Positions 11,034 to 32,900 of a stretch of 33,484 bases of DNA are shown here, piece by piece. Below the pieces are notes generated by a model, which saw only the letters and a list, made by a program, of their open reading frames with translations, did not search any database and was not told the DNA's origin. The stretch comes from Fragilaria crotonensis (taxonomy: Eukaryota > Bacillariophyta > Fragilariophyceae > Fragilariales > Fragilariaceae): assembly GCA_022925895.1 (NCBI GenBank), contig JAKSYS010000680.1:1-33484 (forward strand), read 5' to 3'. Positions within the stretch are counted from its first letter, which is position 1; each line of letters starts with the position of its first letter. Both the position numbers and the translations under genes were made by a program.

Positions 11034-11043
11034 ATCAGCAGTC

Positions 11044-11179
11044 AGAGTTGCAAATCTTTTGTGTCTCTCACCCGAGTGCTATGTTGTCCTCATCCTCGTC
11101 GTCCACACTGGCAGCAGAGTTGCCAAATCTTGTGTCTCTCACCGGAGTGCTATGTTGTCCTCATCCTCGTCCACACTGG
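11044..11179. repeat. Tandem duplication, about 70-bp period, spanning an acidic coding segment and a splice-donor-like site
   Basis: 11044-11111 and 11116-11179 are near-identical (small indels). On the minus strand each copy encodes an acidic VDEDEDNIAL segment followed at once by GTGAGAGACAC, a donor-like sequence. An acceptor-like TAACAG lies just 3' of the downstream copy (around 11030). It looks like a duplicated exon end in the 5' part of the transposase gene. Confidence 0.7.
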
Positions 11180-11227
11180 TGGTCTCCTTGATGTCGTTGG
11201 CAGCACCACAGACCTGCAAGGGAACAC

Positions 11228-12106
11228 TCAATAGTGTATCCTGATCCTCAGTACAATCGATGGTTGGGACACTACTGTTTCCTCCTCGGTGACAAAGAGC
11301 AGAGGGAAGCATTTCCTGAAAACGCCACGAATCTGCTCACGTGAAGGGGATTTTGCATTAATCAAAGCCGTCGCCAAGTGTTTCCTACCTTCTGTGACAT
11401 TACTTTGAGTGAAAGACATCTCATCAACTTCTTTTCGTTCAAGAAGATGTAACACGACAGCGACTGTAAAGATTCCGCAGTCGTATCCATTGTTCTGCCG
11501 AGGACATTCTTTGTATTGTGCGCGTTGAAGAACGTCGACATCTGACTGGTGTAGGGACTGATATTTGGCTTCATGAAGAATGTAGAACTTAAAGAAGAAG
11601 TTGACCTTCTCGACAATTTCAGCAGCAGTACTGGAACGATGAATTCTCGTTCGTGCGCGCTCCATAGAGTCGTAGAAACACACGTTCACAAAGAATTTTG
11701 GATCATTTACCGAAAAGTCAAAGCATGCCACAAAGAAATGTCCGGGACTATCAGGTGGCCCCCGAACAATTGGAATAATAAGCCTCTGTGGGACATCCTC
11801 GATGTTTTCATCGAGAATATTCTTGAAATCGCCATCCTTGACATGGTATTTGAGAACATTCTTGAACTTGGTGCGAATCTTGCGAATGTGATTCTGGTAT
11901 GCTTTCCAATCATTCTTTGTTCTCGCTTGTTCCCTTTTAATTGAGGCAGTTAGATTCATTGATGATATAAATGCCTCTGCACCAAGACTACCCAGCAACG
12001 GTTCAACAGCCGGTACTGTATGTGACAATGTCGAGTCAGGCAGTAAAGTTGTAAGGTTGATGATGTAGTCAAGAAGAGCAGTACTGAGAAAAGCTCTTTT
12101 AGACAT
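11228..12106 (-). CDS. Ulp1/SENP-type SUMO protease (C48 cysteine protease)
   Basis: This 292-codon frame has the C48 catalytic set in order: His in PGHFFVACF (residue 123), Asp in CFYDSMER (146), Gln in CPRQNNGYDCGIF (204) and the nucleophile Cys (210). The family removes SUMO or related modifiers from proteins. Here it sits just upstream of a MULE transposase on the same strand, as in MULEs that carry captured Ulp1 genes, so it is probably part of the element. The start may be internal: 12311-12107 reads related protein (residues such as HARTQLFPGDPRFGVVIKPP) in other frames, so the original gene was probably longer and has two frameshifts. The catalytic domain itself is intact. Confidence 0.85.
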   Translation of the reverse strand: MSKRAFLSTALLDYIINLTTLLPDSTLSHTVPAVEPLLGSLGAEAFISSMNLTASIKREQARTKNDWKAYQNHIRKIRTKFKNVLKYHVKDGDFKNILDENIEDVPQRLIIPIVRGPPDSPGHFFVACFDFSVNDPKFFVNVCFYDSMERARTRIHRSSTAAEIVEKVNFFFKFYILHEAKYQSLHQSDVDVLQRAQYKECPRQNNGYDCGIFTVAVVLHLLERKEVDEMSFTQSNVTEGRKHLATALINAKSPSREQIRGVFRKCFPLLFVTEEETVVSQPSIVLRIRIHY

Positions 12107-14857: not shown

Positions 14858-16484
14858 TCAATTGCCGGTTCTTGATGCCACTCCCTTGCACGCATCTATA
14901 AATGCTTCGCTGTCGACGAAGTCAGTGGGGTCCTTTGACATCCTGATCTCCAATCCAAGGGCACAGACCTCGGCTGGGATTTGCTGGGACAACATGGTAT
15001 GCTCGAAATTGGCAAAACTCAGTTTGGTAAGTGCACCCACTTCGCTTGGCACATTCCCAGTCAGCATAGTTGTCAGACATGTCGAGAACAACCAAATCTG
15101 TCAACAGACCAAGCTCAGTAGGGATGGTCCCGGAAAAACGGTTCGACCAAAGTTCAAGGGAAGTTAATTTGGTCAATCGCGCCAATTCGGTTGGCAAAGT
15201 CCCAGTCCATTCATTGATGAGGAATGCCACGCTCTCCAAAGCAGTGAGACGTCCGATGTGTGTCGGTAGCGTCGACGAATTATGCCCTAAACGGTTTGCG
15301 TCGCTTACCACGGAAAGCGACGTTAAATCAGTCATGGCCACAAAGGCGTCCGTCAACCATGTATTGCTTGGAGTGGCGACGCCATCTAAGTAAAGAGTCC
15401 GTATATTGCTGAGGAGGGTAACCTCGGATGGAATCGCAATCTCATCTGTATTGGAAAGCACGAACACCCACAATGTGGTTAATCGCGACAGCTGTCCAAT
15501 CTCTGTTGGAAGCGGCCCTGCCAAGAACACGCTTCCCACTGTCAGCGATTCTGGAGGTAAAAAGGTCAATTGAGATCACAGATAGAACGCAGCCATAGAA
15601 AAGCAAAAACATTCTTGAGGCGAACAAATCTGCGTACCTAATGATTCGACAGTACCGATCTCAGTGGGAATCGATCCAGACAAAGCTGAACCTTCTAAGT
15701 CGAGCATCGTCAACTTTGTGCACAAGCCTATTTCGGAAGGAAGCTGACCCGCCAATGTAGTTGATCGCAGGTCAAGAGTCTTCAAGTCCACCAAACGTCC
15801 AATTTCACTGGGCATGCTTGTCCCTCCAAGATTGTTCCCTGCTAAACTTAGACTTTGGAGCGAAGTCAGAAGTCCCAACTGTGAGGGGACATCTCCCACC
15901 ATTTGGTTGTCGGGCAAAGAAAGGGCGACAATAACGTCCTTCTTGCCGTCCTTGTCTTTCGTACAGTTGACACCGTGCCATTCGCACATTGGCGAGGGCT
16001 GCATCCAATTCTGGGCACTCCTCCACCCATCTCCCCTCAAAGAAAAGTAAATGGTTGCCAAAGCGAAGTACACATCTATATCCTCCATTTCATCATTGTT
16101 TGCACGAGTCCACCGGATTGCCAAGGCATTAGCCGCGATAAGCTCAGCGGGACAGTCATCACCTGCTAGACTCCTAGTCACGTCGTAGTCGGGCAGCGAT
16201 GGATAAATTGCCTTCAGTTCCTCGTACTTCACGCGAGCACACTCTGGCACGATGCATTCAGTGTTGATAGGATTATTGCCGGTACACTCATTTCCCGAGG
16301 AGTTCCCCGCTGTTGGTGATTGGCGGACTGTCAGAACGATGCATACCACGGCTGCAAGAAGAAACGAAACAGCACCGGCAATGAGCAGATAGCAGCGGAA
16401 TCGCTTGAGCGTGCTCTCCAACTGGGTCATGGCACCTTCAACGGTGCCATCATGAGAAGTATTGTAGGGCATCTGTTCGTTCAC
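14858..16484 (-). CDS. Leucine-rich-repeat receptor-like protein, single-pass membrane, two exons, one frameshift
   Basis: Exon 1 (16484-15638) starts MNEQMPYNTS. A membrane segment spans about residues 31-53, preceded by a basic KRFR stop, so the N-terminus is likely cytosolic and the repeats extracellular or lumenal. An LRR cap with WRSAQNWMQPSPMCEWHGVN follows at about 154-174, then repeats of the form LxxLxLxxNxLxGxxPxEIG from about 185. A GTACGC donor and CCAG acceptor give an 87-bp intron (15551-15637), and splicing keeps frame (VESLESLTVG). Exon 2 continues the repeats. Near 15076 the repeat path LDMSDN to MLTGNVPSEVGAL changes frame, suggesting a 1-bp insertion. The repaired path ends at 14858; the unrepaired frame ends at 14922. 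The ligand is unknown; such proteins are a large family in diatoms. Confidence 0.85.
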
Positions 16485-17413: not shown

Positions 17414-19174
17414 ATGTCATCCGTTTTGTTCCAACACCCATCTCAGATGCCCAACGCTATCACTGCTAAAACCGGTAACAGTAATAATCCAAGTCATGAT
17501 AGTCGTAGCAACAATCGGAATATGAGCAAGAAACAACGAAACAAGCCGATTTTGGCAGCTGGTCGAAAGTTGCATCAATTGCCAGAATCCATAGAGGCCA
17601 CAGGTGTGGGAGTGGCCATGGCAGCGTTGCCGAATCGAATCTTGGGACAAGGCAAGCGAAAGGTTTGGGCGGGCGTGGAACGTTGCATCGCGGCGCGTCG
17701 CGAATTGGTGACTACTGCAAGTGGTAGTGCTAGTAATACTGGTACTCGAACAACCGGTAATAGTCGCAATGGCACGAACGAATCACCGATGACTGCAAGC
17801 ACAACATCACGGCGTCGACAACAATGTCCTTGGCAGCCAAAGTTGGAGGCACTTCGTGCGGCATGGATCTTCAAGCTTCGAAAACGATTTCGGGATGATT
17901 GTGGATCCAAGGCTCCTCCTGCGCTTGCCTTTGAGCGTTGGTTCCAAACAAATGAAATGTTATTTACTAATGACAATATTATAAGCGATCCAATACTGAT
18001 CCCCACGACGACCAAACAGACAGTGAACACGACAACAAAGACGAAACGAACCATTATGACGTGGGAATCTATTCTCAATGGTCCATCGGCGCCTGCGGCC
18101 ATTGCGTTCAAGGAGGATTTGGAACGAGCCACAATCGATAGGCACGACGCGGAGCGGATTATCTGCGCCTTGTATGAGAACGTGGCGGCTGCAGCCCGTG
18201 ACATGGCGGATCAGCAAGCGGCAGCACAACGACAGGAGCGAGAGAAGCCTAGTGACAATGCTACGTCAACGACAGCCACCGGAGGAGTGGTCAAGCTGGT
18301 TCGACACAAGCACACGTACGATTTGTTTCTCATCAACAACCAGAAACATATTTTGAAATTGAATCATGAACATTACGACAAGTTGGCGGCGCTTTGGAAT
18401 GTGACGCATGATTTGAGTCCGGACAAGAATGACGATCGTGATGAATTCTACAGCGATTTATACTGCCTCTTGGCGCGGTATTATTCGATTCAAGGACCTG
18501 GATTTCAAGCAGCATGTCCCGAAGCTGTCTTTGACACGTTGCAGTCTGGCCTCCATGTACAACATGAATGCTTCGCAAGTCCGCTGAACTGTTACTACGG
18601 TTCTTTTTGTTCGGCATTTTTTGAGGTTGATGAACCATTTGGATCTTCAGGCTCGTTTTGGGACTTTTCACCGACTCTGGGTGGAAGCTTCCAAGCAAAT
18701 CCACCCTTTGTCCATCATGTCATGGTGCGCATGGTGAGCAAGATAGAATCGCTTCTCTTGAACGACGAAACTGTTCCATTTTCGTTTGTCGTGATTGTCC
18801 CCGTTTGGTTGGAGGAATCGTCGTATCAAGCAATGGCTGCATCAAAATATAAAACCCATCACTATATCATTGCCAAGGCCGATCATGGATTTTGCGATGG
18901 CGCACAACATCAACGAAGAGATCGGTATCGTGTCAGTCCCTACGACACTGCCGTATTCATCTTACAAAACACAGCCGGAAAGACCAAGTTTGTTCCATCG
19001 TGCACATTTGAAGCCGATCTGAGACGTGCCTTTGCCACTGGTGTCCCTACCGAGGCTGCGATACTTCGCCGCAAGAGAGATGGTCGTGGAGAGATGGTCG
19101 TGGAGAGACGGACGAGGACGGTGGTGGGGGTGTGTACAAGGGAAGGAAACGGAATAAAACCGGTGACGGTGTAG
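17414..19174 (+). CDS. PCIF1: PCIF1/CAPAM-like cap-adenosine N6-methyltransferase, C-terminus altered
   Basis: The 586-residue product carries the PCIF1 core: CFASPLNCYYGSFCSAF, then FWDFSPTLGGSFQANPPF with the catalytic NPPF at residues 429-432, then FSFVVIVPVWLEESSYQAM and YDTAVFILQN. In animals PCIF1 adds N6-methyl to a cap-adjacent 2'-O-methyladenosine (m6Am) on RNA polymerase II transcripts in the nucleus. The first 50 residues are basic and low-complexity; the N-terminal WW domain of animal PCIF1 is not visible. A 14-bp tandem duplication at 19077-19104 shifts frame in the tail: the open frame ends at 19174, while the other frame continues to a Lys-rich end and a stop at 19240-19242. 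Duplicated tail fragments elsewhere in the window support the Lys-rich end as ancestral. The methyltransferase core lies upstream and is intact. Confidence 0.9.
   Translation: MSSVLFQHPSQMPNAITAKTGNSNNPSHDSRSNNRNMSKKQRNKPILAAGRKLHQLPESIEATGVGVAMAALPNRILGQGKRKVWAGVERCIAARRELVTTASGSASNTGTRTTGNSRNGTNESPMTASTTSRRRQQCPWQPKLEALRAAWIFKLRKRFRDDCGSKAPPALAFERWFQTNEMLFTNDNIISDPILIPTTTKQTVNTTTKTKRTIMTWESILNGPSAPAAIAFKEDLERATIDRHDAERIICALYENVAAAARDMADQQAAAQRQEREKPSDNATSTTATGGVVKLVRHKHTYDLFLINNQKHILKLNHEHYDKLAALWNVTHDLSPDKNDDRDEFYSDLYCLLARYYSIQGPGFQAACPEAVFDTLQSGLHVQHECFASPLNCYYGSFCSAFFEVDEPFGSSGSFWDFSPTLGGSFQANPPFVHHVMVRMVSKIESLLLNDETVPFSFVVIVPVWLEESSYQAMAASKYKTHHYIIAKADHGFCDGAQHQRRDRYRVSPYDTAVFILQNTAGKTKFVPSCTFEADLRRAFATGVPTEAAILRRKRDGRGEMVVERRTRTVVGVCTREGNGIKPVTV
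19077..19104 (+). repeat. 14-bp perfect tandem duplication that shifts the PCIF1 reading frame
   Basis: GAGATGGTCGTGGA occurs at 19077-19090 and again at 19091-19104. With a single copy, the frame runs on past 19174 to a basic tail of the type RRRQERASAKPAKKTK and stops at 19242. Confidence 0.9.
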
Positions 19175-20436: not shown

Positions 20437-21153
20437 ATGCGTGACTTTCCTGATACTGTCCGGAAGGCTGTCGGTGCTGTTGTACCATTACCTTGCGCTC
20501 AACCGTTTATTGGTATGAAGCTGCTGCAGCCCATTCGGCACGACCAGGTGGCCCGGCATGGCCTCTTTAGACGCAAGCCCGTGCTTACAGATTTCGAGAC
20601 TAATGCAAGGACTCGTGCCGATTTCGTTGTCGATCTACCGGTAGGTGTAAAGGAAAAACTGGAAAGCCTCGGCGCAAATTCCGGGGCGCAGTATGTACGA
20701 GCATTGCAAGTGACTCAATCAGCTCCCTTCCTCAAAGCGCGTTTGCACGTTGTCAACCCACCACAAGCTAATGATCTTGCCGGAATCGGCTTGAAGGCTG
20801 CAAGTGACGACAACTGGAGCCTATGTTTATACAGTGGACTAATCACGAAGAAATCCTTGCCAACGCTAGGAATGAGAAGTATCCTACAGAACGCTGACAT
20901 TAAGTCGGATGACCATTTGACAAACATCAAGGGAGTGGTTACTGCCATTTACTCCGTCACCGGAGCGTTGACGTACGTCGGAGATGTCGAGCATGTTACT
21001 ACGGGTGAAGCGCCAATTGAAAGTGCCCATGTTCTCAAGGGATGGCACTACACGGCAACCGACGATGGAAACGTCATCCTGTCCGAAATTGGTCCAAAAG
21101 AATGGATTATTGCCATCGAGTACAAGACGTTGGAAGAATTGATGATGAGATAA
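20437..21153 (+). CDS. Cluster family protein, copy 1 (gasdermin-like core, hypothesis)
   Basis: Uninterrupted frame of 238 codons from ATG at 20437 (a GTG six bases upstream is in frame). The order of blocks is: amphipathic head FPDTVRKAVG, GMKLLQPI, GLFRRKPVL, ITKKSLPTL, then GVVTAIYSVTGALTYVGD, then an end with KEWIIAIEYKTLEE. Alternating hydrophobic residues in the last blocks suggest beta strands. There is no signal peptide or classical membrane helix. The family is not one I can name with certainty. Block order and length resemble the gasdermin pore-forming domain, which oligomerises in membranes. The C-terminal half is nearly identical to the partial copy at 27485-28004. No regulatory domain is attached. 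Confidence 0.75.
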   Translation: MRDFPDTVRKAVGAVVPLPCAQPFIGMKLLQPIRHDQVARHGLFRRKPVLTDFETNARTRADFVVDLPVGVKEKLESLGANSGAQYVRALQVTQSAPFLKARLHVVNPPQANDLAGIGLKAASDDNWSLCLYSGLITKKSLPTLGMRSILQNADIKSDDHLTNIKGVVTAIYSVTGALTYVGDVEHVTTGEAPIESAHVLKGWHYTATDDGNVILSEIGPKEWIIAIEYKTLEELMMR

Positions 21154-21181
21154 GGACCGGACAACTATGCATTCACAGATT

Positions 21182-21835
21182 TTATTGGGTTGCTTGCTCC
21201 TTCGTCTCGTATATCTCTCCCAACTCCAGTAACTCAATGCCGATCATCCATTCAACTGGACCTGTTTCAGACAGCACGACATGTCCAGAATCGGTCACCA
21301 TGTATTGGCATCCCGCCATTATTTTGACTTGCCCGGTAGGCGTGGGGTCAAATTGCACTCCACCGGTAGTAACGAGCCTAGAATCTCTGATGTATGTCAA
21401 CCCTCCAGTGACGGAGTATAAAACAGTAACCAGTCATGTCTTCCTATTCATTGAGTGAAGCCTCTGAACGTCGTACTCGTCCAGGAAAATAATCAATGCA
21501 ATCGCATTCACCGATTTCCTCGTAATTTTGCAATCGTTAAAAGAGAAGCTCCGAATCTTGTCAGTAGTTGCCTTCAAGTCGATGCTGGCAAGATCCAGCT
21601 GATTCCGTCACCACCCAAGCAAGTATATACTGCACGCTGAACATTTTGACAAGGCTTGCTAGTTTTTCTCGAAGCTCGTCCTCGATATGCGCGATGAGAG
21701 TTTCAGCCTTCGCTTCGACAGTATTAAGCACATCCTTGCGTCGAAAAAGGCCGTAGCAGCCCATGCGTCGACGGCATGGTACGCATGCCGTACCCAGCCT
21801 GAGGACGGCGTTTGGAAAGGCGTGGTTTGCTTAAT
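21182..21835 (-). pseudogene. Cluster family pseudogene, copy 2
   Basis: The minus strand has the family head (HAFPNAVLRLG then CVPCRR, about 21825-21770), then GCYGLFRRKDVLN, a middle part ending at a frame change near 21575, and the C-terminal part (21400-21182) ending with EWMIGIELLELGE. Compared with its neighbours it lacks about 15 residues between CVPC and GCYG (the GVKLLELIDH block) and has frameshifts around 21560 and 21440. It is most like copies at 22442 and 29643. It converges on copy 1, whose stop is only about 30 bp away. Confidence 0.75.
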
Positions 21836-21897
21836 TGATGTGTGTCACAAACCTGACGCAGTCAACGTAATTGATATTTTGTTCAGCCGTGCACCAC

Positions 21898-22063
21898 CGA
21901 AGACGCGGATGACCAGGCGGCCAACCGACCGTTGGGCAACATGTATAAAAGAGAATTACAAAATAATGTAAAGGAGCAGGCGAGGGAGTGGAACAGTGGA
22001 GGTGGCAGAGAACTTGCTAGCGCGAAACCAGCGAAGAACGTGAAGCAGAGGACGACGAAACTA
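21898..22063 (+). pseudogene. Duplicated fragment: family tail joined to PCIF1-like tail
   Basis: 21898-21950 matches the 3' end of the copy at 27485-28004 (shared GAAGACGCGGAT and GGCGGCCAAC words, then AACATGTATAA). 21979-22063 then matches the PCIF1 3' end (ELASAKPAKN compared with ERASAKPAKK). So a family copy and a PCIF1 tail were next to each other before duplication. Confidence 0.6.
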
Positions 22064-22441
22064 AATGTTTGCCATATACTGTGTTTACGTTTTCCTCTTT
22101 TAGGACGAGCGGCGATTTCAAACTTCAAGTTATGAGGAGACACCGCGCCACTCAGTCCTATTTCGACCGGTTCTACCGGTAGTGCAAGTGCAAACATGAA
22201 TAAAAGTTTTCTAAAAGGTTGTCAGGTCCCAAGCAACGTATCCGTGGTACCACCACAACATCCTTTCATTCCACATGGTATGTAATGCATGATTTACGAA
22301 AGATTAGTCGAGAATTCTGAAGCATCCCTCATGCATTTTTCTGTGCTTCTTCATTATGCATGCTGATCATAGGTCAGTTGGCCGGCAGGTGAACCATACC
22401 TTCAGACATGGTGACCCAACTTTTCTAAGTCGCAACGATCT
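22064..22441. other. Intergenic stretch with weak similarity to the pyruvate kinase 3' flank
   Basis: No gene. 22180-22260 resembles 32115-32205 by eye (shared GGTCCCAAG, GCAACGT, and a similar order of short words), which would be a third piece of duplicated neighbouring DNA. This needs alignment. Confidence 0.3.
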
Positions 22442-24598
22442 TTACTGCGTTAAGAAATCCTTCTTTGCGTCTGTCGTTTCCAACTTGAGGAACTCAATGC
22501 CGATGATCCGTTCAACTGGATTGGTTTCAGACAGGACGACTTGTCCAGAATCGGTCACCGTGTATTGACATCCCTCCATGATTTCGACAGGCCCGGTTTT
22601 ACTTTGGTCCAATTGCTTTCCACCATGAGCAACGCGACCAGAATCTCCGACATATGTCAACCCTCCAGTGACGGAGTATATAACAGTAACCACCCCCATC
22701 TTGCGTGTTGCAGGGACGCCATGTTCGTCCAGGAAATCAATCAAGTCCATCACTGACACCGATTTCTTGGTAATTCGACCATCGTTAAAAGAGAGGCTCC
22801 AACTTTTGTCACCAGTAGCCTTCAAGCCGACGCTGGAAAGATCCACATCTCGTAGCGGGTGTGTAGCGTGAAACGCCGACATCAAGCTAGCTGATTGCGT
22901 CACGTCCGAAGCAAGTATAAACTGCACGCTGAACTCTTTGACAAGGTTTTTAAGTTTTTCTCGTTGCTCGTCCTCGACGCACTCGATGAGAGTTTCAGAA
23001 TTCGGTTCGACGGTATTAAGCACATGCTTGCGTCGAAAAAGGCCGTAGCATCCCAGATGGCGGTGATCGATGAGCTCCAGCAGCTCAATGCCAATGCAAG
23101 GTAGACGACATGGTACGCATGACACACCAAGCCTGCTGACAACGTTTGGAAAGGCGTTGGAGTGCTTGATTATTTTCTGTGACAAACCTGACACTGTTTG
23201 GACGCCCCTTTTGATGTCAAGCTCATCGGCTTTCAGCACCCCAAAATCCTCCAAGTGACGTGCAACATCATCGTTTTTCTCCTTGCGAGCCACATCAAGA
23301 GCTGTTTCGCCGTCTTTATTTGTGATATTCAAAACAACCCCTTTGTGTTCCAATAAAGCTCCAACCACTTCCAAATGGCCTTCCTTGCTTGCTTTGATTA
23401 GCGCGGTATCGCCGTCTTTATTCGTGATATTCACATCAACCCCTTTGTGTTTCAATAAGGCACCAACCACTTCCAAACGGCCTTGCTCGCTTGCTTTCAT
23501 TAGAGCGGTGTCGCCGTCGTTATTGCTGATATTCACATCAACCATTTCGTGTTTCAATAAGGCACCAACCACTTCCAAACGGCCTTGCTCGCTTGCTTTC
23601 ATTAGAGCGGTGTCGCCGTCGTTATTGCTGATATTCACATCAACCATTTCGTGTTTCAGTAATGCATCAACCACTTCCAAATGGCCTTGCTCGCTTGCTT
23701 TGATTAGAGCGGTGTCGCCGTCGTTATTGCTGATATAAACAGCAACCATTTCGTGTTTCAGTAATGCATCAACCACTTCCAAATGGCCTTGCTCGCTTGC
23801 TTTGATTAGAGCGGTGTCGCCGTCGTTATTGCTGATATAAACAGCAACCATTTCGTGTTTCAGTAATGCATCAACCACTTCCAAATGGCCTTGCTCGCTT
23901 GCTTTGATTAGAGCGGTGTCGCCGTCGTTATTCCTGATATAAACAAAAACCCCTTTGTGTTCCAATAAGGCTCCAACCACATCCAAATGGCCTTCCTTGC
24001 TTGCTTTGATTAGAGCGGTGTCGCCGTCGTTATTGCTGATATTCACATCAACCCATTTGTCTTCCAATAAGGCTCCAACCACATCCAAACGGCCTTCCTT
24101 GCTTGCTTTCATTAGAGCGGTGTCGCCGTCGTTATTGCTGATATTCACATCAACCCATTTGTCTTTCAATAAGGCTCTAACCACTTCCAAACGGCCTTCC
24201 TTGCTTGCTTTCATTAGAGCGGTGTCGCCGTCGTTATTGCTGATATTCACATCAACCATTTCGTGTTTCAGTAATGCATCAACCACTTCCAAATGGCCTT
24301 GCTCGCTTGCTTTCATTAGAGCGGTTTCGCCGTCTTTATTCGTGATATTCACATCAACCCATTTGTCTTTCAATAAGGCTCTAACCACTTCCAAACGGCC
24401 TTGCTCGCTTGCTTTCATTAGAGCGGTTTCGCCGCCATACTTATCCTTGATATTCACATCAACCCCTTTGTGTTCCGATAAGGCTCCAACCACTTCCAAA
24501 CGGCCTTGCTCGCTAGCATGGATGGGCGCTAACTTAACCTTGTCGAGATTCCCACCTCTGGCATTCCGAATCAATTCTGAATCAAACCTATCACTCAT
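22442..24598 (-). CDS. Ankyrin-repeat protein with C-terminal cluster-family (gasdermin-like) domain
   Basis: 718 residues, one open frame. Residues 1-49 are a head with the first degenerate repeat (FDSELIRNARGGNLDKV). Residues 50-424 hold eleven ankyrin repeats of 34 residues (NNDGDTALMKASEQGRLEVV type), with a closing half repeat to about 458 (TALDVARKEKNDDVARHLED). A short linker leads to the family domain at about 480-710: NAFPNVVSRLG, CVPCRLPC, GIELLELIDH, GCYGLFRRKHVL, ITKKSVSVMDLIDFLDE, GVVTVIYSVTGGLTYVGD and RIIGIEFLKLE. Ankyrin arrays bind proteins, so the N-terminus is likely a sensor or restraint for the C-terminal domain (inference). The repeats are close to identical at DNA level, which means recent expansion or gene conversion. 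This is the most complex member of the cluster. Confidence 0.85.
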   Translation of the reverse strand: MSDRFDSELIRNARGGNLDKVKLAPIHASEQGRLEVVGALSEHKGVDVNIKDKYGGETALMKASEQGRLEVVRALLKDKWVDVNITNKDGETALMKASEQGHLEVVDALLKHEMVDVNISNNDGDTALMKASKEGRLEVVRALLKDKWVDVNISNNDGDTALMKASKEGRLDVVGALLEDKWVDVNISNNDGDTALIKASKEGHLDVVGALLEHKGVFVYIRNNDGDTALIKASEQGHLEVVDALLKHEMVAVYISNNDGDTALIKASEQGHLEVVDALLKHEMVAVYISNNDGDTALIKASEQGHLEVVDALLKHEMVDVNISNNDGDTALMKASEQGRLEVVGALLKHEMVDVNISNNDGDTALMKASEQGRLEVVGALLKHKGVDVNITNKDGDTALIKASKEGHLEVVGALLEHKGVVLNITNKDGETALDVARKEKNDDVARHLEDFGVLKADELDIKRGVQTVSGLSQKIIKHSNAFPNVVSRLGVSCVPCRLPCIGIELLELIDHRHLGCYGLFRRKHVLNTVEPNSETLIECVEDEQREKLKNLVKEFSVQFILASDVTQSASLMSAFHATHPLRDVDLSSVGLKATGDKSWSLSFNDGRITKKSVSVMDLIDFLDEHGVPATRKMGVVTVIYSVTGGLTYVGDSGRVAHGGKQLDQSKTGPVEIMEGCQYTVTDSGQVVLSETNPVERIIGIEFLKLETTDAKKDFLTQ
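23327..24451 (-). repeat. 102-bp coding tandem repeat (ankyrin array)
   Basis: Eleven units of 102 bp (one of 105) encode the ankyrin repeats. Some adjacent units, such as those around 23652-23753 and 23754-23855, look identical base for base, including synonymous sites. Repeats alternate between a few surface variants (KHEMVDVN, KDKWVDVN, EHKGVFVY), so changes are at the loop ends. Confidence 0.95.
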
Positions 24599-25839
24599 AA
24601 CGATCAGCTTGTGACAGGGATCAATGCAAGTGACGATCGAAATCTAATCTTGGCTGAGGGTGATCTGATCTGTGACACGCTAAAGCAAGTCAATTTACGT
24701 GCTGTGTTGAGCGTTGAGAATTCGCGAATCTGTTGTGGAGCTCTGTAGAAGGATGCAAGTGCACAGAACCATGAATCAGCATTTTGAGGGAGTATCATAC
24801 AACTCCGAGCATTCCAGTACTATCATAATCCTACGCAACAGTAATTTGCAAAGCCGCTAGCTCATTTTAAGACGATCGAGCCATACCGGTATGAGCAGCT
24901 AAATAAATAGTAAGACCCTCTAACGACAATCTCAAATAAACATGGCTGGCGAATGAAATCCCATAGACGGTGCTGTACGGTGTACTCTAAAGTTCCCCAT
25001 TTAGCGCTCCCAAATAAAAATTTTCAAAGATATGCCCCAATAATAATCCGGTATAAACGTACACAGGGATTGCACACGATACAACAGGCCTGCACCACGC
25101 CGGCCCCGTTGCTGGCGATTGCAACGGGATCATCCAAGCGATCTAAACGAAAAACGGTGAAGTGTGTTTTCCGGTCGTTCGAATACTCTCTCTCTACTAC
25201 TAGCTAGTATGGATCGAAATGAAAGGTCGACGTGACTGTATAAGATCAAATCCAAACTCTCGTTGGGAGTTCAAATTTACACGATCAATCCAATATATGA
25301 TGTATATAAGCATATAAGCACTATTTCAAAAAAAGTCACGAATGCATTCCCGGTCCTTTACTTGTATAGCAGTACTCAGATTGAATTCGTTCCTAAAACA
25401 ACGCATAGGCCAGGCGGATCCGACTGAAAAATCCATCACACTAATGCCGTTGAAGCATGTTGAATTTTGAACTACTTGTAGACTTGTAGTCTACTCGGAG
25501 TACCCTTGCACCTGGTTCTGCGAGTATGTTGTGTTCTGTATGCCTGAGGATGGTGCGTAGAATTTGTGCATATCCCAAATGATTGAATCAAGGATCAAGG
25601 TATGTATATAGCATATGCGCCGTCCTCGAGAAAGTCTATTTTGGTGCACCATACTACATGTACTGTAATAATCGTAGTAAACAATTCTGTACCTGTATGA
25701 TACTACGTACCAATTGACCAAAAAAGGAGACTTCATTGATGAGCGAAAGGAATAACACCACGCATCTTGATCCAAGGTCTGCAATCGACGGAAAACAACA
25801 TAAACAACTGACGGCGCCACGCTAGTACACCAGCACCAT
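24599..25839. other. Intergenic region between divergent cluster members
   Basis: No gene supported. It should hold the promoters of the ankyrin gene (minus) and the 25840 gene (plus). 24650-24710 shares the words CTGTGACACGC and GTCAATT with DNA upstream of the 29643 copy (30730-30745), which hints at a shared upstream region. The minus-strand frame 26051-25491 overlaps the next gene and shows no motif. Confidence 0.45.
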
Positions 25840-26892
25840 ATGCCGACTCTCGACGACTTACATGATGCTGTCCGAATCGCTATGAAAACGGGCTTGCCTT
25901 TAGCTCGGCCAATCACGGGCATGCAGCTCCTGCAGTTCATCGGAAACGCCGACGTGGAATGGTACGGCGGTATCTTAAGACGCAAGTACGTGCTAAAAGA
26001 ATCCAAGCACCCTTCTGATACTCTCATCAAGTACGTCGATCTCCATGCCAACCATCACAAAGAACCACTTCAAAGAATTCTGGACGCTCAGGACCAACAA
26101 TACCTTAGACCATCTGACGTGTTGAGATCACACTCCTCTGAAACGGAAGCAAGCACATCCGTCCCACTTCAAGGCGCGGGCATTCTCAGATTCGGCTTCA
26201 TGTCTAAAAACAAGAAGAAATTCAGCATCGAATTTGGCAACGGACAAATTCTGAGGAAATCAGTGTCAACAATGAATTTGATTGATTTCCTGGACGACCA
26301 TGAAGTCAAGAGGCGTCGCTCCCTAACGAACATGAAGGGAGTGGTTACTGCTGTTTACTGTATCACTGGAAAGTTGGTGTATAAGGGAACGACCGTTCAC
26401 GTCACCAGTGGTGGAGCGCACTTGAACACAGCGCCAAATCTGCCAATCAACGTTACGGCGGGATTCATGGAGACAAATACGGAAGGGGTAATCCTGCCAG
26501 AAAACACTGAGGAATCTGGAGGATTGACTAATACCGTAAATTCCTCGTCTGTCACTGCAGGTGGAGTGCAATCGAACGCCACGCCAACCGGACCTGTCAA
26601 CGTTAATACGGGATTTCAAAGCACACTTGCAAATATGGAAGACGCACTCCTACCAGAAACGAACACTGAGGAATCTGGAGAATCCACGTCTGTCGCTGCA
26701 GGAACAGTGCAATCAGGTCTTACTTCAATTGCGCCTGTCAATTATACGGCGAGATTGCAACGAACGATGGCCAGTTCGGAAGCGGTAAGCGTGTCACCAA
26801 GCGATACCGATGAATGGATTATCGCCGTTGACATCCTAGAGTTTGATGAACAAGAAAGGGGTAGCAATCGATTAAAGTTCGTTGCACCTTAG
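25840..26892 (+). CDS. Cluster family protein, copy 4, with triplicated C-terminal segment
   Basis: 350 codons from ATG at 25840. Core blocks: LHDAVRIAMKTG, GMQLLQFIG, GGILRRKYVL (residues 43-52), GQILRKSVSTMNLIDFLDD (135-153), GVVTAVYCITGKLVYKG (167-183) and a final DEWIIAVDILEF (324-335). Between the last two blocks, where relatives have one segment of about 45 residues, this protein has three: residues 188-227, 238-280 and 285-326, each starting V(T/A)(S/A)G and containing a TEESG or TDEW end. The repeated part is Thr/Asn/Gly-rich and could be an exposed beta or flexible region. The gene abuts a PCIF1 fragment at its 3' end. It is intact in frame, so it may be functional with an altered C-terminal half. 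Confidence 0.75.
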   Translation: MPTLDDLHDAVRIAMKTGLPLARPITGMQLLQFIGNADVEWYGGILRRKYVLKESKHPSDTLIKYVDLHANHHKEPLQRILDAQDQQYLRPSDVLRSHSSETEASTSVPLQGAGILRFGFMSKNKKKFSIEFGNGQILRKSVSTMNLIDFLDDHEVKRRRSLTNMKGVVTAVYCITGKLVYKGTTVHVTSGGAHLNTAPNLPINVTAGFMETNTEGVILPENTEESGGLTNTVNSSSVTAGGVQSNATPTGPVNVNTGFQSTLANMEDALLPETNTEESGESTSVAAGTVQSGLTSIAPVNYTARLQRTMASSEAVSVSPSDTDEWIIAVDILEFDEQERGSNRLKFVAP

Positions 26893-27160
26893 AAAATTAG
26901 AATTGCTTCCAATGAAAGACGATAAAGTTCAATTTTCGTTTGTGGTTATTGTCCCTGTTCGGTTCGAGAAATCGTCGTATCAATATATATGGCCGCATAA
27001 AATTTAAAAACCCAACACTTAAAATCATCGCCAGGCCGATCATGGGTTTTACCATGAGGCACAATATCAAAAATTGAGGAAAGCCGAGGCTGAATGTCAG
27101 ACCGAGAACAGCTGAAAGATGGTCTAACACAAATACGGTTGCAACAAGGTGGGGATCTAA
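26893..27160 (+). pseudogene. PCIF1-like pseudogene fragment
   Basis: The plus strand reads VQFSFVVIVPVRFEKSSYQY and then, after a stop, QADHGFYHEAQYQ, matching residues around 440-505 of the PCIF1-like protein at 17414 (FSFVVIVPVWLEESSYQ, KADHGFCDGAQHQ). The match starts right after the stop of the preceding gene and contains several stops. It is dead and far too short to act. Confidence 0.88.
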
Positions 27161-27184
27161 GAAATCTACATGTCGGTTCTTCTG

Positions 27185-27412
27185 CCATTCAGTCACCGAT
27201 TTCCTCGTAATTTTGGAATCGTAAATAGAGAGGCTCCAACTCTTGTCAGAAGTAGCCTTCAAGCAGACGCTGACGAGATCCGCATCTTGAAGTGGGAATT
27301 TAGCGTGGAAAGTTGACAAAAAGGCAGCTGATTCCGTCACCACGCAAGCTAGTATATAGTGCATGCTGGACTTTTCGACAAGGTCTTCAAGCTCTTGGGT
27401 ACTTGTATTCTT
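27185..27412 (-). pseudogene. Cluster family fragment, copy 5 (middle part)
   Basis: The open stretch KNTSTQELEDLVEKS, HYILACVVTESAAFLS, FPLQDADL, CLKATSDKSWSLS and KITRKSVTEW matches the central part of the family, closest to the copies at 22442 and 21182. It has neither head nor C-terminal part and continues out of the family into the reverse of the PCIF1 fragment. It is a truncated remnant. Confidence 0.8.
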
Positions 27413-27484
27413 CACACCCGGTTTCCGTTTAAACGTCAGAGTAATGGGTAATGTACTTGGGGACACCGCGAACTCCGTTTGTGC

Positions 27485-28004
27485 ATAGGTTCTAGCGAAG
27501 TCGTGCAGAAGCACTGTTCGAGAGAGCTACTGATCTTGCAAGGAACGGATTGACTGGAGCCTCGCTGCGTTCGGCAATGGCCAAATCAAGAAGAAAGTAT
27601 GTTCAATGATGGAGTTAAAACATATTCTAGAGGAAACTGACGTTATGGTGGATGATCATTTGACAAACGTCAAGGGAGTGGTTCCTGCTATCTACTCCGT
27701 CACCGGAGCGTTGACGTACGTCGGAGATGTCGAGCATGTTACTACTGGTGAAGCGCCAATTGAGAGTGCCGATGTTCTCTCCGGATGGCAATACGCGGTG
27801 ACCAACGATGGAAACGTTATTCTGTCCGAAATCGATCCAAAAGAATGGATGATCGCCATCGAGTACAAGACGTTGGAAGAATTTGATGAGCTATATGATG
27901 CTAGTTGCAAAGCTGGTTACTCGTTGAGAGTACGTGATCACGATAGACCACGAAAGAAGACGCGGATTACCTGGCGGCCAACTGACCATTGATTAACATG
28001 TATA
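27485..28004 (+). pseudogene. Cluster family fragment, copy 6 (C-terminal half)
   Basis: An ATG at 27606 opens a 128-codon frame with LTNVKGVVPAIYSVTGALTY, YVGDVEHVTTGEAP and KEWMIAIEYKTLEEFDE. Upstream, 27485-27605 still reads degraded family protein (GNGQIKKKV and DLARNGL), so the head was lost by a break against copy 5. The C-terminal half is almost the same as copy 1 (20437). An extra tail ends KKTRITWRPTDH. It could be translated as a half-domain, but is more likely a broken gene. Confidence 0.7.
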
Positions 28005-28065
28005 ATGAACCAACACAGAACAAAATGCATGAGGAAGGCGATCGTGTCGAACGGCGGAGGCAGCA
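28005..28065 (+). pseudogene. PCIF1 tail fragment
   Basis: 28037-28065 reads GDRVERRRQHL, matching GDGVEQRRRQ of the PCIF1 tail at 19160-19190. It is in frame with the gene that follows and makes the ATG at 28005 doubtful as the true start of that gene. Confidence 0.55.
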
Positions 28066-28169
28066 CCTTTAGTTTTCAAGTGAACGGGAGTACAGAAATT
28101 CTCAGCATACCTGATCCATCCGAAAGCAAGGACGATATCAACGCTCGAACCAGATTATTGTACTGCAGT

Positions 28170-28922
28170 ATGGAGGACGCCTTTTCAAATGCTGTCCGGG
28201 AGGCTCTCGGTGGAGTTCCACCAGTACTTGTCCCTTGCGCTCAACCATATCCAGGTGTCAAGCTACTGAATCTCATCCCACGCTCCCACATTCGAGTGTC
28301 TGGCCTTTTTCGACGCAAGCGTGTGTTTGGGAACCCCGGAAATTCGTATGATTCTCTCCTCCGTTTAGTTGATCACGATGATGATCAACGAGAAGAACTT
28401 GAAACGATTGTTACAGAAGCCGTACCTGTCAGTTTAAAAACGATTCCAATCAATTCCATGACGGTGGGTTTTAATGCATTCATGCCCTTGCAAGACATGG
28501 AACTTGCCGGCGTTGGTCTCAAGACTTTGAATGACTGCAACTGGAAAATCAATTGCAGCCATGGCCAAATTGAAAAGAAATCATTGTCAATAATAACATT
28601 GACAGACTTTTTAGAGAGGAATCGCGTCGCGTGGCGTCCTTGCATGAGTATCTTCGAGGGAGTGGTTACTGCAATCTACTACATCACCGGAGGGGTGAGA
28701 TACATTGGAGATTCCGAGCTCGTCACAACTGATGGAGTGCAATTGGATCCCACAACGCCAACTAGGCCTGTCAACATAATTGCCGCGGGGTGGCATTATG
28801 TGGTGAACAATGCTGGTCAAGTCCAATTGTTCGAAACCGATCCAACGGAATGGATTGTCGCCATTGAGTACCAAAAGTTGAAAGAAGGAACTGACCACCG
28901 AATCAGGCTCGTTGATTTTTAG
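28170..28922 (+). CDS. Cluster family protein, copy 7 (gasdermin-like core, hypothesis)
   Basis: The start is set at ATG 28170 because relatives begin there (MEDAFSNAVREALGG) and the 55 in-frame codons before it include a PCIF1 tail remnant. The product has 250 residues: amphipathic head 1-15, VPC at 21-23, GVKLLNLIPR 29-38, GLFRRKRVF 45-53, a charged stretch DDDQREELETI 70-80, IEKKSLSIITLTDFL 134-148, GVVTAIYYITGGVRYIGD 164-181 and TEWIVAIEYQKL 226-237. The amphipathic strand around 164-181 is the best conserved part of the family. No ankyrin or other domain is attached. It is the best reference copy of the bare domain and suits structure prediction. Confidence 0.75.
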   Translation: MEDAFSNAVREALGGVPPVLVPCAQPYPGVKLLNLIPRSHIRVSGLFRRKRVFGNPGNSYDSLLRLVDHDDDQREELETIVTEAVPVSLKTIPINSMTVGFNAFMPLQDMELAGVGLKTLNDCNWKINCSHGQIEKKSLSIITLTDFLERNRVAWRPCMSIFEGVVTAIYYITGGVRYIGDSELVTTDGVQLDPTTPTRPVNIIAAGWHYVVNNAGQVQLFETDPTEWIVAIEYQKLKEGTDHRIRLVDF

Positions 28923-29642
28923 AAAAAGCATGAAGCTTCGCGTCGACCCGATCAACAATCACCAATTACCAATACAGCCATTAACGACGATCGAAAACAT
29001 GATTCACTTGGGGACAAACCGACCGTTTGATCAACAAGCATCGTGCAATAAGGAATGAAGAAACGAAGAAACACAGTAAATTGTACTACTCTCTAGTAGA
29101 CCTACTCGAGTGCAGTTCTGGAATATGCATTCTGAAGTACAGTACCGTAGTACTACTACTCGAGTATTGGTGAAGGAATGTGGGTATGCGTGTTGATTGT
29201 ACAGATCCGATTAGGTTTCACCGATTTGACGTCAGCGCGTACCAATCAGGATGCTCTCAGCATGTTACTGTCTTACTGTAGTACTGTATGTCAGTACGTT
29301 GAACGTGAAGTCATCAGTACTGTGACGTGGGCGTTGACGTCAAATTGGTGAAACCTAATCGGACCCATTGGAGAAAGGCAATACTGTACACTGTAGTAAC
29401 CGTACAGTAGATCGAGCAAGTATCCATCCAAAATGTGACAGTAGGTAGGTCTTGTCTAATAAGTTTTGTTAAACTGAATTACGTGTCATCACATTCATTC
29501 AGTTATGAGAGCATGGTAAGCTCTCCAACCAGATATTAAATGATTTGATCAGTAGATTCCACAAAACAAACTCCATACTTCTTCTGTAGGATAAATCCCA
29601 ATGCATGCATTCAAAGCTTGGTCGGTCGCCTGGTAATGATCT
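28923..29642. other. Intergenic stretch with a MITE
   Basis: No gene. 28975-29050 resembles 31880-31930 (shared ACATGATTCAC and GGGGACAAACCGACC-like words), another shared flank. 29050-29460 is rich in GTACTGTAGTAC-like words and contains the inverted-repeat element at 29206-29363. Confidence 0.55.
29206..29363. mobile_element. MITE-like element, 158 bp, 33-bp terminal inverted repeats
   Basis: The left arm (29206-29238) starts TCCGATTAGGTTTCACC; the right arm (29331-29363) is its reverse complement with 2 mismatches in 33. Both arms contain TGACGTCA, the full palindromic CRE. No clear target-site duplication at the edges and no coding capacity. The arms fit a non-autonomous DNA transposon or a regulatory inverted repeat. 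Confidence 0.8.
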
Positions 29643-30671
29643 CTATTGCGTTGCTACCGGTAGTTCCTTCTTCTCGTATATATCACCCAACTCGAGGAAC
29701 TCAATGCCGATGATCCGCTCAGCTCGATTGGTTTCGAACAGGATGACTTCTTCAAAGTTGTTCACCATGTATTGACATCCCGCCATGATTTTGACAGGCC
29801 CGGTTGGCGTGGGGTCCAATTGCACTCCACCGGTAGTAACGAGCCTCGAATCTCCGACATATGTCAACCCTCCAGTGACGGAGTATATAACAGTAACGAC
29901 TCCCGTCTTGCTATTCATAGAGCGAAGCCGCTTGACGGTATTTTCCTTCAGGTAATCAATCAAGTTCGTCTCTGACACGGATTTCTTCGTAATTTGACCC
30001 TCGTTGAAATAAAGGCGCCAACTCTTGTCACTTGTACGCTTCAAACCGACGCTGGCAAGATCCGCATCTTGTAGCGAGAATTCCGCGTGAAAAGCCGAAA
30101 TAAAGCCAGCTGCTTGTGTCACGTCCCACGCTATTGTAGACTTCTCGTCGAACTCTTTGACAAGGGTTTCAAGTCCTTCTCGTTGGTCGTCCTCGACATG
30201 ATCAATGAGAGTTTCAGCATTCGCATCGAAGGTATTCAGCACCCGATTGCGTCGACAAAGACCGTAGTAACCCAGGCGGCGGCGGTGATCAATTAATTCC
30301 AGAAGCTTGACACCGGTACAAGGTCGACGACATGGTACGCATGTCGAACGGAGCCAGCTGACAGCGTTTGGAAAGGCGTTTTTGGACGAGAAGTGCGTCA
30401 TGGATTTGGGCGGCGACCTACCTGATGCAATCAACGCCAATTTTGGGTGCATTGACACAAGCATGTCCTTCACACTCCTGTGGTCGTCGTTTAACGCCCC
30501 ATGTGCCATGAGGAACTCTAATCCCGAAAGATCCTCCAAAAATGCATCATCACCTTCTTTATCCGGTCGAGGCGTATCAAGAGCTTGGTGTGATGTGCAG
30601 CCAATTAGCTCGTTCTCGAGATTTTCATTCGTGTCATTCTGGATCAATTCTGAATCAAGATTGAGACACAT
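29643..30671 (-). CDS. Cluster family protein, copy 8, with remnant of the ankyrin-type N-terminus
   Basis: 342 codons. The family core is at about residues 98-330: NAFPNAVSWLR, CVPCRRPCTGVKLLELIDH, YYGLCRRNRVLNT, ITKKSVSETNLIDYL, GVVTVIYSVTGGLTYVGD and ERIIGIEFLELGD. The first 97 residues begin LDSELIQND and include ALDTPRPDKEGDDAFLEDL. These match the beginning (FDSELIRN) and the closing half repeat (ALDVARKEKNDDVARHLED) of the ankyrin gene at 22442. So this is a sister of that gene with the ankyrin repeats missing, or the state before they expanded. The frame is intact. Confidence 0.8.
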   Translation of the reverse strand: MCLNLDSELIQNDTNENLENELIGCTSHQALDTPRPDKEGDDAFLEDLSGLEFLMAHGALNDDHRSVKDMLVSMHPKLALIASGRSPPKSMTHFSSKNAFPNAVSWLRSTCVPCRRPCTGVKLLELIDHRRRLGYYGLCRRNRVLNTFDANAETLIDHVEDDQREGLETLVKEFDEKSTIAWDVTQAAGFISAFHAEFSLQDADLASVGLKRTSDKSWRLYFNEGQITKKSVSETNLIDYLKENTVKRLRSMNSKTGVVTVIYSVTGGLTYVGDSRLVTTGGVQLDPTPTGPVKIMAGCQYMVNNFEEVILFETNRAERIIGIEFLELGDIYEKKELPVATQ

Positions 30672-31025
30672 AATGATCTACTCAGTACTCTCTGATTTGA
30701 CAAAGAAGCAACACAAAGTGGCGTCTGACACGCAAACGTCAATTCAAAGTGGTACAAGTACCTGGTGTATTGTTCGCTCGGCAGCTGGTATGATCTTTCT
30801 CATTAGTTGGACGAGGTGTTCAAATATTTCACGTGCGAGGGGGGAACCCCCACGGGAAGGCATTTCAGGCTTTTCACAAGTTCGTCATACAAGAATCTCG
30901 ATCCAGAAATGTGTCCATCGAACAAATTGTCTCCAGAATTCCGAAGTCATATGTCACAATGGCTGGAATCAGGGAAACATTTCTTTGGGTAGGCTATGGT
31001 CGCTCTAGTATGATATAATTTTAGT
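30672..31025. other. Short intergenic stretch, function not clear
   Basis: A plus-strand frame at about 30770-31018 reads HVRGGNPHGKAFQAFHKFV and onward with protein-like composition, but has no start and no family I recognise. It may be a gene fragment. Confidence 0.3.
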
Positions 31026-31470
31026 TTATATTACGCGATAGCGAAGAAAAGCATTCCATTGAAGTGTGATTGGCGTTTCGACTTTAGATGACCTGTCGTC
31101 GAGTTTCATTTTCAGTTTGTAGTTTGTAATAGCAATCCCGCGGTCAATTCGACTGGAACTTTCTTGCGTGAGATCCAATTGCGATCCACCATTGCGGTTA
31201 CGAATGTGGAAGCTCCGGTGCATGTCAAACCCTCCTGCAACGTAGTAGATTGCAGCAGGTCACCACACTCCCGCGACCTGAATCATTACGCTACTCCAAT
31301 GCAGCCCTACTTCTTCTCTTTTGAATTTTGCCCATCTTAAACATGGACACGGATTTGTTCTTCAAAGTGATCAGTGGCGAGAGGAAGGAAGGCTGTAGCT
31401 GTTGTCATTTGTCGCCTTGAAGCCGACGTTGGAAAGATCCCCATCTCTTGCAGTTTTGGGATGGATGCAT
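31026..31470 (-). pseudogene. Cluster family remnant, copy 9, heavily decayed
   Basis: In shifting frames the minus strand has DLSNVGFKATNDNSYSLP (about 31430-31380; compare DLSSVGLKATGDKSWSLS in the 22442 copy) and, lower down, a GGSQLDLTQ segment (about 31185) matching GGVQLDPTP. Stops and shifts are frequent. The head could not be traced beyond about 31470. It is clearly older than the other broken copies. Confidence 0.6.
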
Positions 31471-32220: not shown

Positions 32221-32900
32221 TCATTCGACATGCACCAATTTCATCGTGGCGGTATCATGCTGTGTGTCCACGTCAACATAGACAACCGAATCTCCAACCT
32301 TGACGAATCCCAATTTCTTCGCATCCTCTACTGCCTCCTCCAACGACCCCGTCCCAACAATGGGATGGATACCACGATAAATCATCAACTGCCGTCCCAA
32401 TTTGGCACTGTCACAAAAGCACAAGATGGGCACTTGTGGTCGGTACGCACTCACGAGCGCGGGGAGTGTCCCATCCTTCAAAGTCGACACCAAAATGGCT
32501 GTGGCCTGTTGCGTATCCGCGGCCGTGACGGCAGCCTTGGCAATGGCACCCATGAACGAGGCGTCAGGAGCCTCGAAACGACGGACCGACGCACCACCCA
32601 CACCACCCTCGGACGCGTACCGTTCAGCACTCAAGATAATGTCATTCATGATTTTGACGGATTCGACAGGATACTTGCCCTTGGCAGTTTCTCCCGACAG
32701 CATGACACAGTCGGCACCATCGTAAATGGCATTCGTCACGTCTGCAACTTCAGCGCGAGTGGGACGAGGGTTTTTGGCCATACTTTCCAACATTTGAGTG
32801 GCCACAATGACGGGTTTGCCAACGGAGTTGCAGGCGGCCACCATTTCCTTCTGAGCGTTGGTCACTTGCTGCAATGGGAGTTCGACACCCAAATCGCCAC
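32221..32900 (-). CDS. PYK: Pyruvate kinase, C-terminal exon (partial gene)
   Basis: The exon encodes about 225 residues: GGDLGVELPLQQVTNAQKEM, KPVIVATQMLESM, NPRPTRAEVADVTNAI, DGADCVMLSGETAKGKYP and a C-terminal domain ending KLVHVE. These are the end of the catalytic barrel and the C-terminal domain of pyruvate kinase, which converts phosphoenolpyruvate and ADP to pyruvate and ATP. An acceptor (CAAACAG) precedes GTGGCGATTTGGG at 32900; the split codon is the Arg of the usual ARGDLGVE. The N-terminal and most catalytic-barrel exons are not in the window. An open frame begins upstream at 32961 but its first residues are not kinase-like and are intron. Confidence 0.92.

What the first reader, a model, noticed from the sequence alone, without database searches (positions are those of the whole stretch)
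20437..31470. Clustered family of possible gasdermin-like proteins in a diatom
Nine full or partial copies of one domain lie in 11 kb, on both strands. Length (238-250 residues for the bare copies) and block order fit the gasdermin pore-forming domain: an amphipathic head, a conserved strand followed by an aromatic/basic (G)LFRRK..L turn, a KK.S....L..L helix, an amphipathic strand pair (GVVT.IY..TG.L.Y.GD) and a final (W/R)I.(G/A)IE strand. Gasdermins of animals, fungi and bacteria form pores and kill cells or cause lysis; fungal relatives act in allorecognition. Seen: the family and its blocks. Inferred: the link to gasdermins. A new cell-death or recognition locus in diatoms would be notable, and even if the link fails, the family is unnamed to me and worth naming.
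Basis: partly seen in the sequence, partly recalled or inferred. Interest (0 to 1): 0.9.

Follow-up and report, generated by a model that had tools for sequence, protein, structure and literature searches.

The report
Fast-evolving diatom gene family, possibly gasdermin-like
This stretch of a diatom genome holds a cluster of copies of an unnamed protein domain, one fused to near-identical ankyrin repeats, that changes far faster than the gene beside it, as self/non-self or defence genes often do; whether it makes pores like gasdermins could not be tested here.

Summary
Nine full or partial copies of one domain lie at 20437-31463 on both strands: five intact, three broken or partial, one 25-residue scrap. 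The genome is a diatom's (silicon-transporter matches, 18 of 19 over cut-off). I count 14 intact and 9 broken or partial places on eight contigs; three of the broken ones lie on C458, a near-allelic copy of C201. No Pfam, NCBIfam, PADLOC, PDB-sequence, GTDB-contig or IMG/VR relative was found.

The gasdermin link could be neither shown nor refuted. Size, a basic-flanked hydrophobic loop at residues 40-51 and a basic head over an acidic body fit a gasdermin pore-forming domain without inhibitory tail (RCD-1 type). Amphipathic strands did not beat shuffles, and no caspase, CHAT or S8 protease was found nearby.

New here: dN/dS is 0.46-0.83 in eleven pairs, against 0.02-0.03 for the neighbouring duplicated pyruvate kinase. 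One copy carries eleven ankyrin repeats, adjacent ones 83-99% identical in DNA. Three others carry ankyrins and a W/F-rich insert in the loop. I commit to a recognition/conflict family with a membrane-acting domain, possibly gasdermin-type.

The parts
20437..21153 (+). intact bare domain copy, 238 aa
   Evidence: ORF; as query it matches the other four full copies at E 1.5e-21 to 5e-45
21185..21857 (-). broken copy, nearest to the 22445 and 29646 copies
   Evidence: tblastn pieces 47-65% identical to those two, frame change between the pieces; 1 TGA; DNA match at 21767-21857
22442..24598 (-). 718-aa ORF: ankyrin array plus C-terminal family domain (domain about 22445-23179)
   Evidence: Pfam Ank_2 E 5e-130; domain match
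23298..24514 (-). ankyrin-coding tandem array, 102-base unit, 11.9 copies, 91% matches
   Evidence: TRF; adjacent units 83-99% identical in DNA except the last, degenerate one
25840..26892 (+). intact copy, 350 aa, segment between the two C-terminal strand blocks present three times
   Evidence: ORF; units 1/2 53% (E 3e-13), units 2/3 40% (E 2e-9), units 1/3 no BLAST match
27080..27580 (-). partial, broken copy
   Evidence: tblastn
27552..27992 (+). C-terminal half copy; 27623-27893 is 87.5% identical in DNA to 20880-21152
   Evidence: stop upstream
28005..28922 (+). intact copy; bare domain from the ATG at 28170 (250 aa)
   Evidence: ORF
29643..30671 (-). intact copy, 342 aa: 92-residue N-terminal part plus domain (29646-30395)
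   Evidence: ORF; 62% identity to the 22445 copy
31389..31463 (-). 25-residue fragment of a ninth copy
   Evidence: tblastn E 5e-4, 64% over 25 residues
32221..32844 (-). 3' part of a pyruvate kinase gene, also found beside family copies on contig C201; used as evolutionary control
   Evidence: Pfam PK and PK_C; 92-94% DNA identity to two C201 copies; dN/dS 0.02-0.03

Best explanation
A diatom multigene family of cytosolic effector/recognition proteins that evolves by birth and death (measured: clusters, broken copies, high dN/dS). The common domain most likely acts on a membrane, and the best single guess for how is as a gasdermin-type pore-forming domain without a protease-removed inhibitory tail, as in fungal RCD-1 and Trichoplax gasdermin: a basic head with a hydrophobic loop binds acidic lipids, partners meet, and hairpins insert. 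In bare copies firing would depend on meeting the right partner copy; in the ankyrin-fused copies a repeat array that turns over quickly would act as sensor or restraint. Shown: the family, its architectures and its fast evolution. Inferred: cytosolic location, membrane action, pores, the sensor role of the ankyrins, and non-self recognition as the cause of the fast evolution.
For: Unnamed domain in 14 intact copies. Four bare copies are 238-253 aa, against 244 and 257 aa for RCD-1 (PMC12881547, passages). A loop with a hydrophobic tip and basic flanks lies at residues 40-51 in the 20437 and 28170 copies; the GSDMB beta1-beta2 loop has K43, R44, F46, F47, R50 (PMC10115629, passages); shuffles give such a tip at that place in 1.6-2.6% and anywhere in the protein in 34-40% (pattern chosen after the fact). 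Head net positive and rest net negative in 11 of 14 copies. Three copies carry a 41-56-residue W/F-rich insert at that loop and one a hydrophobic tail (Kyte-Doolittle 2.35 over 19 residues). dN/dS 0.46-0.83 in eleven pairs against 0.02-0.03 for the neighbouring duplicated pyruvate kinase in three comparisons. Eleven ankyrin repeats with pN/pS 1.02, 18 of 34 columns differing in residue, like the high-identity repeats that fungal NLR sensors shuffle (PMC10197012, passages). Fungal gasdermin genes also show birth-and-death evolution (same paper, passages).
Against: No profile or PDB match to any gasdermin. Amphipathic-strand signal not above shuffles. No S8, CHAT or caspase-type protease among 20 neighbouring ORFs scanned, whereas about 80% of fungal gasdermin genes are clustered with proteases (PMC10197012). 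The loop motif is clear in only 6 of 14 copies. The repeat-array pN/pS interval is wide (0.53-2.63) and the three other arrays give 0.49, 0.76 and 1.21. No gene pair is clearly above 1, and two of the seven pairs given an interval lie wholly below 1, so relaxed constraint is not excluded. No expression data.
Confidence: 0.4

Rival explanations
1. A fast-evolving recognition or conflict family whose domain is a soluble beta-rich binding domain, not a pore former; the ankyrins and the domain both bind partners, and another protein does the killing or signalling.
For: Fast evolution and modular ankyrins; no gasdermin match; no amphipathic hairpin signal; a segment of the domain is present three times in an open copy.
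Against: W/F-rich insert, hydrophobic tail and basic head point to a membrane.
Confidence: 0.35
2. A weakly constrained, expendable family, carried along by local duplication with the pyruvate kinase segment and with no conflict role; high dN/dS reflects relaxed selection.
For: Nine of 23 places are broken or partial, three of them on the near-allelic contig C458; no pair has dN/dS clearly above 1; transposon-like genes lie in the window.
Against: The 22445 and 29646 copies differ at 162 sites over 243 codons and both stay open; eight columns are invariant across all 14 copies; the 718-aa ankyrin ORF is intact; two pairs show dN/dS intervals below 1, so the protein is under some constraint.
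Confidence: 0.15
3. The domain belongs to another known fold or enzyme family that sequence profiles miss.
For: Shallow single-species alignment and no structure.
Against: No match at useful E-values in Pfam, NCBIfam, PADLOC or PDB sequences; the eight invariant columns are P, P, L, L, G, T, G, E, which does not look like a catalytic set.
Confidence: 0.1

Closest known systems
Fungal RCD-1 (Neurospora crassa) and Trichoplax gasdermin: gasdermins made of the pore-forming domain only
   Same: Similar length; no room for an inhibitory domain in four bare copies (10-22 residues after the last strand block); unlike copies in one genome that could meet
   Different: No detectable sequence similarity; fold and pores untested; ankyrin-fused, W/F-insert and tail-bearing forms; paralogues in clusters, while RCD-1 variants are alleles at one locus (PMC12881547, passages)
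Gasdermin family (PF04598), animals, bacteria, fungi
   Same: Domain length; a basic-flanked hydrophobic loop at a like place in some copies
   Different: No profile match; no protease neighbours found; amphipathic hairpins not demonstrated
Fungal NLR-type receptors with high-identity WD40/ANK/TPR repeats
   Same: Near-identical repeats joined to a candidate effector domain
   Different: No NACHT or NB-ARC match in the 718-aa protein; the domain is C-terminal to the repeats

Membership tests
Gasdermin (PF04598) | Gasdermin N-terminal fold with two hairpins that become transmembrane strands | not testable with these tools
   Structure prediction switched off, so fold search could not be used
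Gasdermin (PF04598) | Profile match to PF04598 | tested here: inconclusive
   No match for any of 14 members or in the own genome; but no over-cut-off hit in 11, 291, 247 and 395 prokaryote genomes either (weak sub-cut-off matches in 5 of 11 at E<=10 and 2 of 395 at E<=0.01), so no positive control
Gasdermin (PF04598) | Pore-forming domain of about 240 residues | tested here: met
   238, 250, 253 and 253 aa in four bare copies; a length shared by many unrelated families
Gasdermin (PF04598) | beta1-beta2 loop with hydrophobic tip and basic flanks near residues 43-50 | tested here: inconclusive
   GLFRRK or near form in 6 of 14 copies, W/F-rich insert in 3, other letters in 5; 1.6-2.6% of shuffles for two copies
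Gasdermin (PF04598) | Amphipathic strands in the two hairpin regions | tested here: not met
   No window beat the shuffled maximum; best beta P 0.33 (18 residues) and 0.57 (12 residues). A low-power test on 14 rows
Gasdermin (PF04598) | Pores in lipid membranes | not testable with these tools
   Needs purified protein or expression in cells
Microbial gasdermin systems | Gene clustered with a protease gene (S8, CHAT or caspase type) | tested here: not met
   None among 20 ORFs scanned. Not every ORF was scanned, none on C458, and outside the window the held flanks reach only 0.7-7.3 kb, short of the 10 kb of the fungal study. A Ulp1-type C48 protease beside a MuDR-like gene (window 11231-12106) and an S9 peptidase 2.7 kb from a C50 copy were seen. 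RCD-1 and Trichoplax gasdermin act without cleavage
Fungal NLR-type receptor | NACHT or NB-ARC domain | tested here: not met
   The Pfam scan of the 718-aa protein gives ankyrins and sub-cut-off matches only
Fungal NLR-type receptor | Repeats of high internal identity | tested here: met
   11.9 copies of 102 bases, 91% matches; adjacent units 83-99% among the eleven good units

The most novel reading that the evidence does not exclude
Diatoms carry their own clade of gasdermins: bare copies that form pores when unlike copies meet, and ankyrin-regulated copies whose repeat arrays are shuffled as sensors. This would be a self-contained cell-death or non-self recognition locus in stramenopiles, outside animals, fungi and bacteria.
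Probability: 0.35. Interest if true: 0.88.

Novelty: new variant of a known kind. Interest (0 to 1): 0.6.

Why it matters
Diatoms are thought to die in regulated ways (recalled), but in the paper listings I saw no pore-forming executioner was named for them (capped listings). A gasdermin clade in stramenopiles would widen a family best known from animals, fungi and bacteria and give a testable killer for diatom cell death. Even without that link, a family whose dN/dS is roughly 15-40 times that of the co-duplicated gene beside it, with a near-identical ankyrin array, is a good candidate for a diatom non-self recognition locus.

Tried and rejected
Tried without result: Pfam, NCBIfam and PADLOC scans of 14 copies (best single-member E-values 0.046, 0.099 and 0.011, all to unrelated families); PDB sequence searches with one copy and three alignments, weak hits only: a dehydrogenase (E 0.41), a potassium channel (8.8), phycobilisome proteins (0.031, 0.7, 2.2; the best one with no single stretch passing), taken as chance; viral contigs with five queries and genome contigs with A3, no relatives. 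PF04598 in prokaryote genomes, meant to fetch microbial gasdermins as a yardstick, gave only sub-cut-off partial matches; I read the neighbourhood of one (L134), judged it spurious, and dropped the route. In one search one of the 12 loci asked for was not held and so not searched. Hydrophobic-moment analysis gave no significant strand or helix.

Considered and rejected: that the Ulp1-type protease is a partner of the family (it sits beside a MuDR-like gene 8 kb away); that C458 copies are independent members (98.9% identical to C201 over 7 kb).
Full report
What is there. The window is contig C646 of a 62.1-Mb genome in 881 contigs. It is a diatom's: silicon-transporter family PF03842 gives 19 matches, 18 over cut-off, best E 4e-193. 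Between 20437 and 31463 lie nine full or partial copies of one domain on both strands: five in intact open frames (20437, 22442, 25840, 28170, 29643), three broken or partial (21185-21857, 27080-27580, 27552-27989) and one 25-residue scrap (31389-31463). The five full copies match each other at E 1e-20 to 3e-91.

The family in the genome. Four single-protein searches of the own genome and re-reading of the loci give 14 intact copies: C646 five, C50 three, C201 two, and one each on C803, C127, C609 and C212. Broken or partial places number nine: C646 four, C458 three, C201 one, C50 one. C458 is 98.9% identical to C201 over 7 kb with 43 gap openings, so its copies are alleles or assembly variants, not new members. 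Such searches give lower bounds. The 14 copies share eight invariant columns and 28% mean column identity. A tree of the 14 rows has 3 of 11 inner branches well supported.

Known families. No member of 14 reaches a Pfam, NCBIfam or PADLOC family at a useful E-value (best 0.046, 0.099, 0.011, each one member and an unrelated family); the 718-aa protein matches ankyrins. No PDB sequence relative (best chance hit E 0.031), no relative in IMG/VR or GTDB contigs. Other diatom genomes were not in any collection open to me, so nothing can be said of the family's spread.

Gasdermin, tested as far as possible. Structure prediction, the decisive test, was switched off. PF04598 finds nothing in this genome or among the 14 copies. 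It also gave no over-cut-off hit in 11, 291, 247 and 395 prokaryote genomes (three genomes counted twice; sub-cut-off matches in 5 of 11 at E<=10 and 2 of 395 at E<=0.01), so I had no positive control. Proteins predicted to have the gasdermin fold can share as little as 1% identity with known ones: the human protein C11orf42 (PMC8986115, passages). For the link: four bare copies of 238-253 aa, against 244 and 257 for RCD-1 (PMC12881547, passages); a hydrophobic tip with basic flanks at residues 40-51 in two bare copies, where GSDMB has K43, R44, F46, F47, R50 (PMC10115629, passages), seen at that place in 1.6-2.6% of shuffles but anywhere in the protein in 34-40% (pattern defined after seeing it); basic head and acidic rest in 11 of 14 copies. 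Against: no amphipathic strand beats shuffles; the loop motif is clear in 6 of 14 copies; no S8, CHAT or caspase-type protease among 20 scanned neighbouring ORFs, while about 80% of fungal gasdermin genes are clustered with proteases (PMC10197012, passages). Outside the window the flanks I held reach only 0.7-7.3 kb, so that test is partial. RCD-1 and Trichoplax gasdermin lack an inhibitory domain and act without cleavage (PMC12547243, passages), so a missing protease does not exclude the reading.

Architectures. Four of the 14 intact copies are fused to ankyrin repeats (22442, C803, C127, C609; those on C803, C127 and C609 are my reading of the sequence, not a Pfam scan). In the window protein the repeats are eleven units plus one degenerate unit of 102 bases, 91% matches, adjacent units 83-99% identical; 18 of 34 codon columns differ in residue, with pN/pS 1.02, interval 0.53-2.63; the three other arrays give 0.49, 0.76 and 1.21 from 3-4 repeats each, the 0.76 with one unit out of register. 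High-identity repeats that shuffle are described for fungal NLR sensors (PMC10197012, passages). The C803, C127 and C609 copies carry a W/F-rich insert of 49, 56 and 41 residues at the loop. The C50:902 copy ends in a hydrophobic segment, Kyte-Doolittle 2.35 over 19 residues. The 25840 copy has the segment between the two C-terminal blocks three times.

Speed of evolution. Nei-Gojobori dN/dS for eleven pairs is 0.46-0.83. The pairs share copies and are not independent, and one holds the half copy 27606. Seven pairs were given bootstrap intervals: five include 1, two lie below it (C803/C127 0.38-0.87; C201b/22445 0.47-0.88). For 22445 against 29646 it is 0.80 (0.55-1.19) at dS 0.31; of its four sections one (residues 56-115) is above 1, at 1.39 (0.67-4.50), not significantly. 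The pyruvate kinase gene beside the cluster (32221-32844), duplicated beside the C201 copies too, gives 0.02-0.03 in three comparisons of 207 codons at dS 0.13-0.21. The contrast is 15- to 40-fold, though pyruvate kinase is a strongly constrained enzyme and so an extreme control. Relaxed constraint is not excluded; but 22445 and 29646 differ at 162 sites over 243 codons and both remain open, which pure drift would make unlikely (inference).

How it most likely works. A cytosolic, membrane-acting effector/recognition family, possibly gasdermin-type, with bare copies set off by unlike partners and ankyrin-fused copies restrained or triggered by their repeats. Only the family, its architectures and its fast evolution are shown; the rest is inference. 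I give 0.4 to this reading as a whole and 0.35 to true gasdermins.

Literature. Searches for gasdermin with diatom, protist, algae or stramenopiles, and for diatom with cell-death executioner terms or allorecognition showed no paper on a diatom gasdermin among the rows listed; the listings were capped (for example 15 of 29, 10 of 785) and only titles and abstract starts were seen. Passages of PMC12881547 and PMC12547243 place gasdermins in animals, fungi and bacteria. [quoted passage not shown] Passages of PMC11760362, PMC10732462 and PMC10949512 were read too and bear only on context.

Noticed in passing
window 32221-32844; L009 2732-3457 and 6862-8531: Pyruvate kinase copies lie next to family copies on both C646 and C201, so the two genes seem to have been duplicated together.
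   Followed up: partly
window 9147-12106: MuDR-like transposase pieces (SWIM finger; DBD_Tnp_Mut below its cut-off) followed by a Ulp1-type C48 protease gene; looks like a protease-carrying Mutator element.
   Followed up: no
window 17414-19174: 586-aa ORF with a PCIF1_WW domain (Pfam E 5e-53), related to an RNA-cap methyltransferase family (recalled).
   Followed up: no
L013 3186-4064, L014 3358-4257, L015 1553-2407: A W/F/D-rich stretch (WFDE, WFDG, WFNW-like units) of 49, 56 and 41 residues in three ankyrin-fused copies.
   Followed up: partly
C97:29749-33762 and C771:21664-24330 of the own genome: Open frames of 1456 and 1008 aa hold three and two silicon-transporter units in tandem.
   Followed up: no
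C201 against C458 (L009, L010): Two near-allelic contigs: two family copies open on C201 are broken on C458; real allele difference or assembly error.
   Followed up: partly
window 14922-16472: Leucine-rich-repeat ORFs of IPTE.G type.
   Followed up: no
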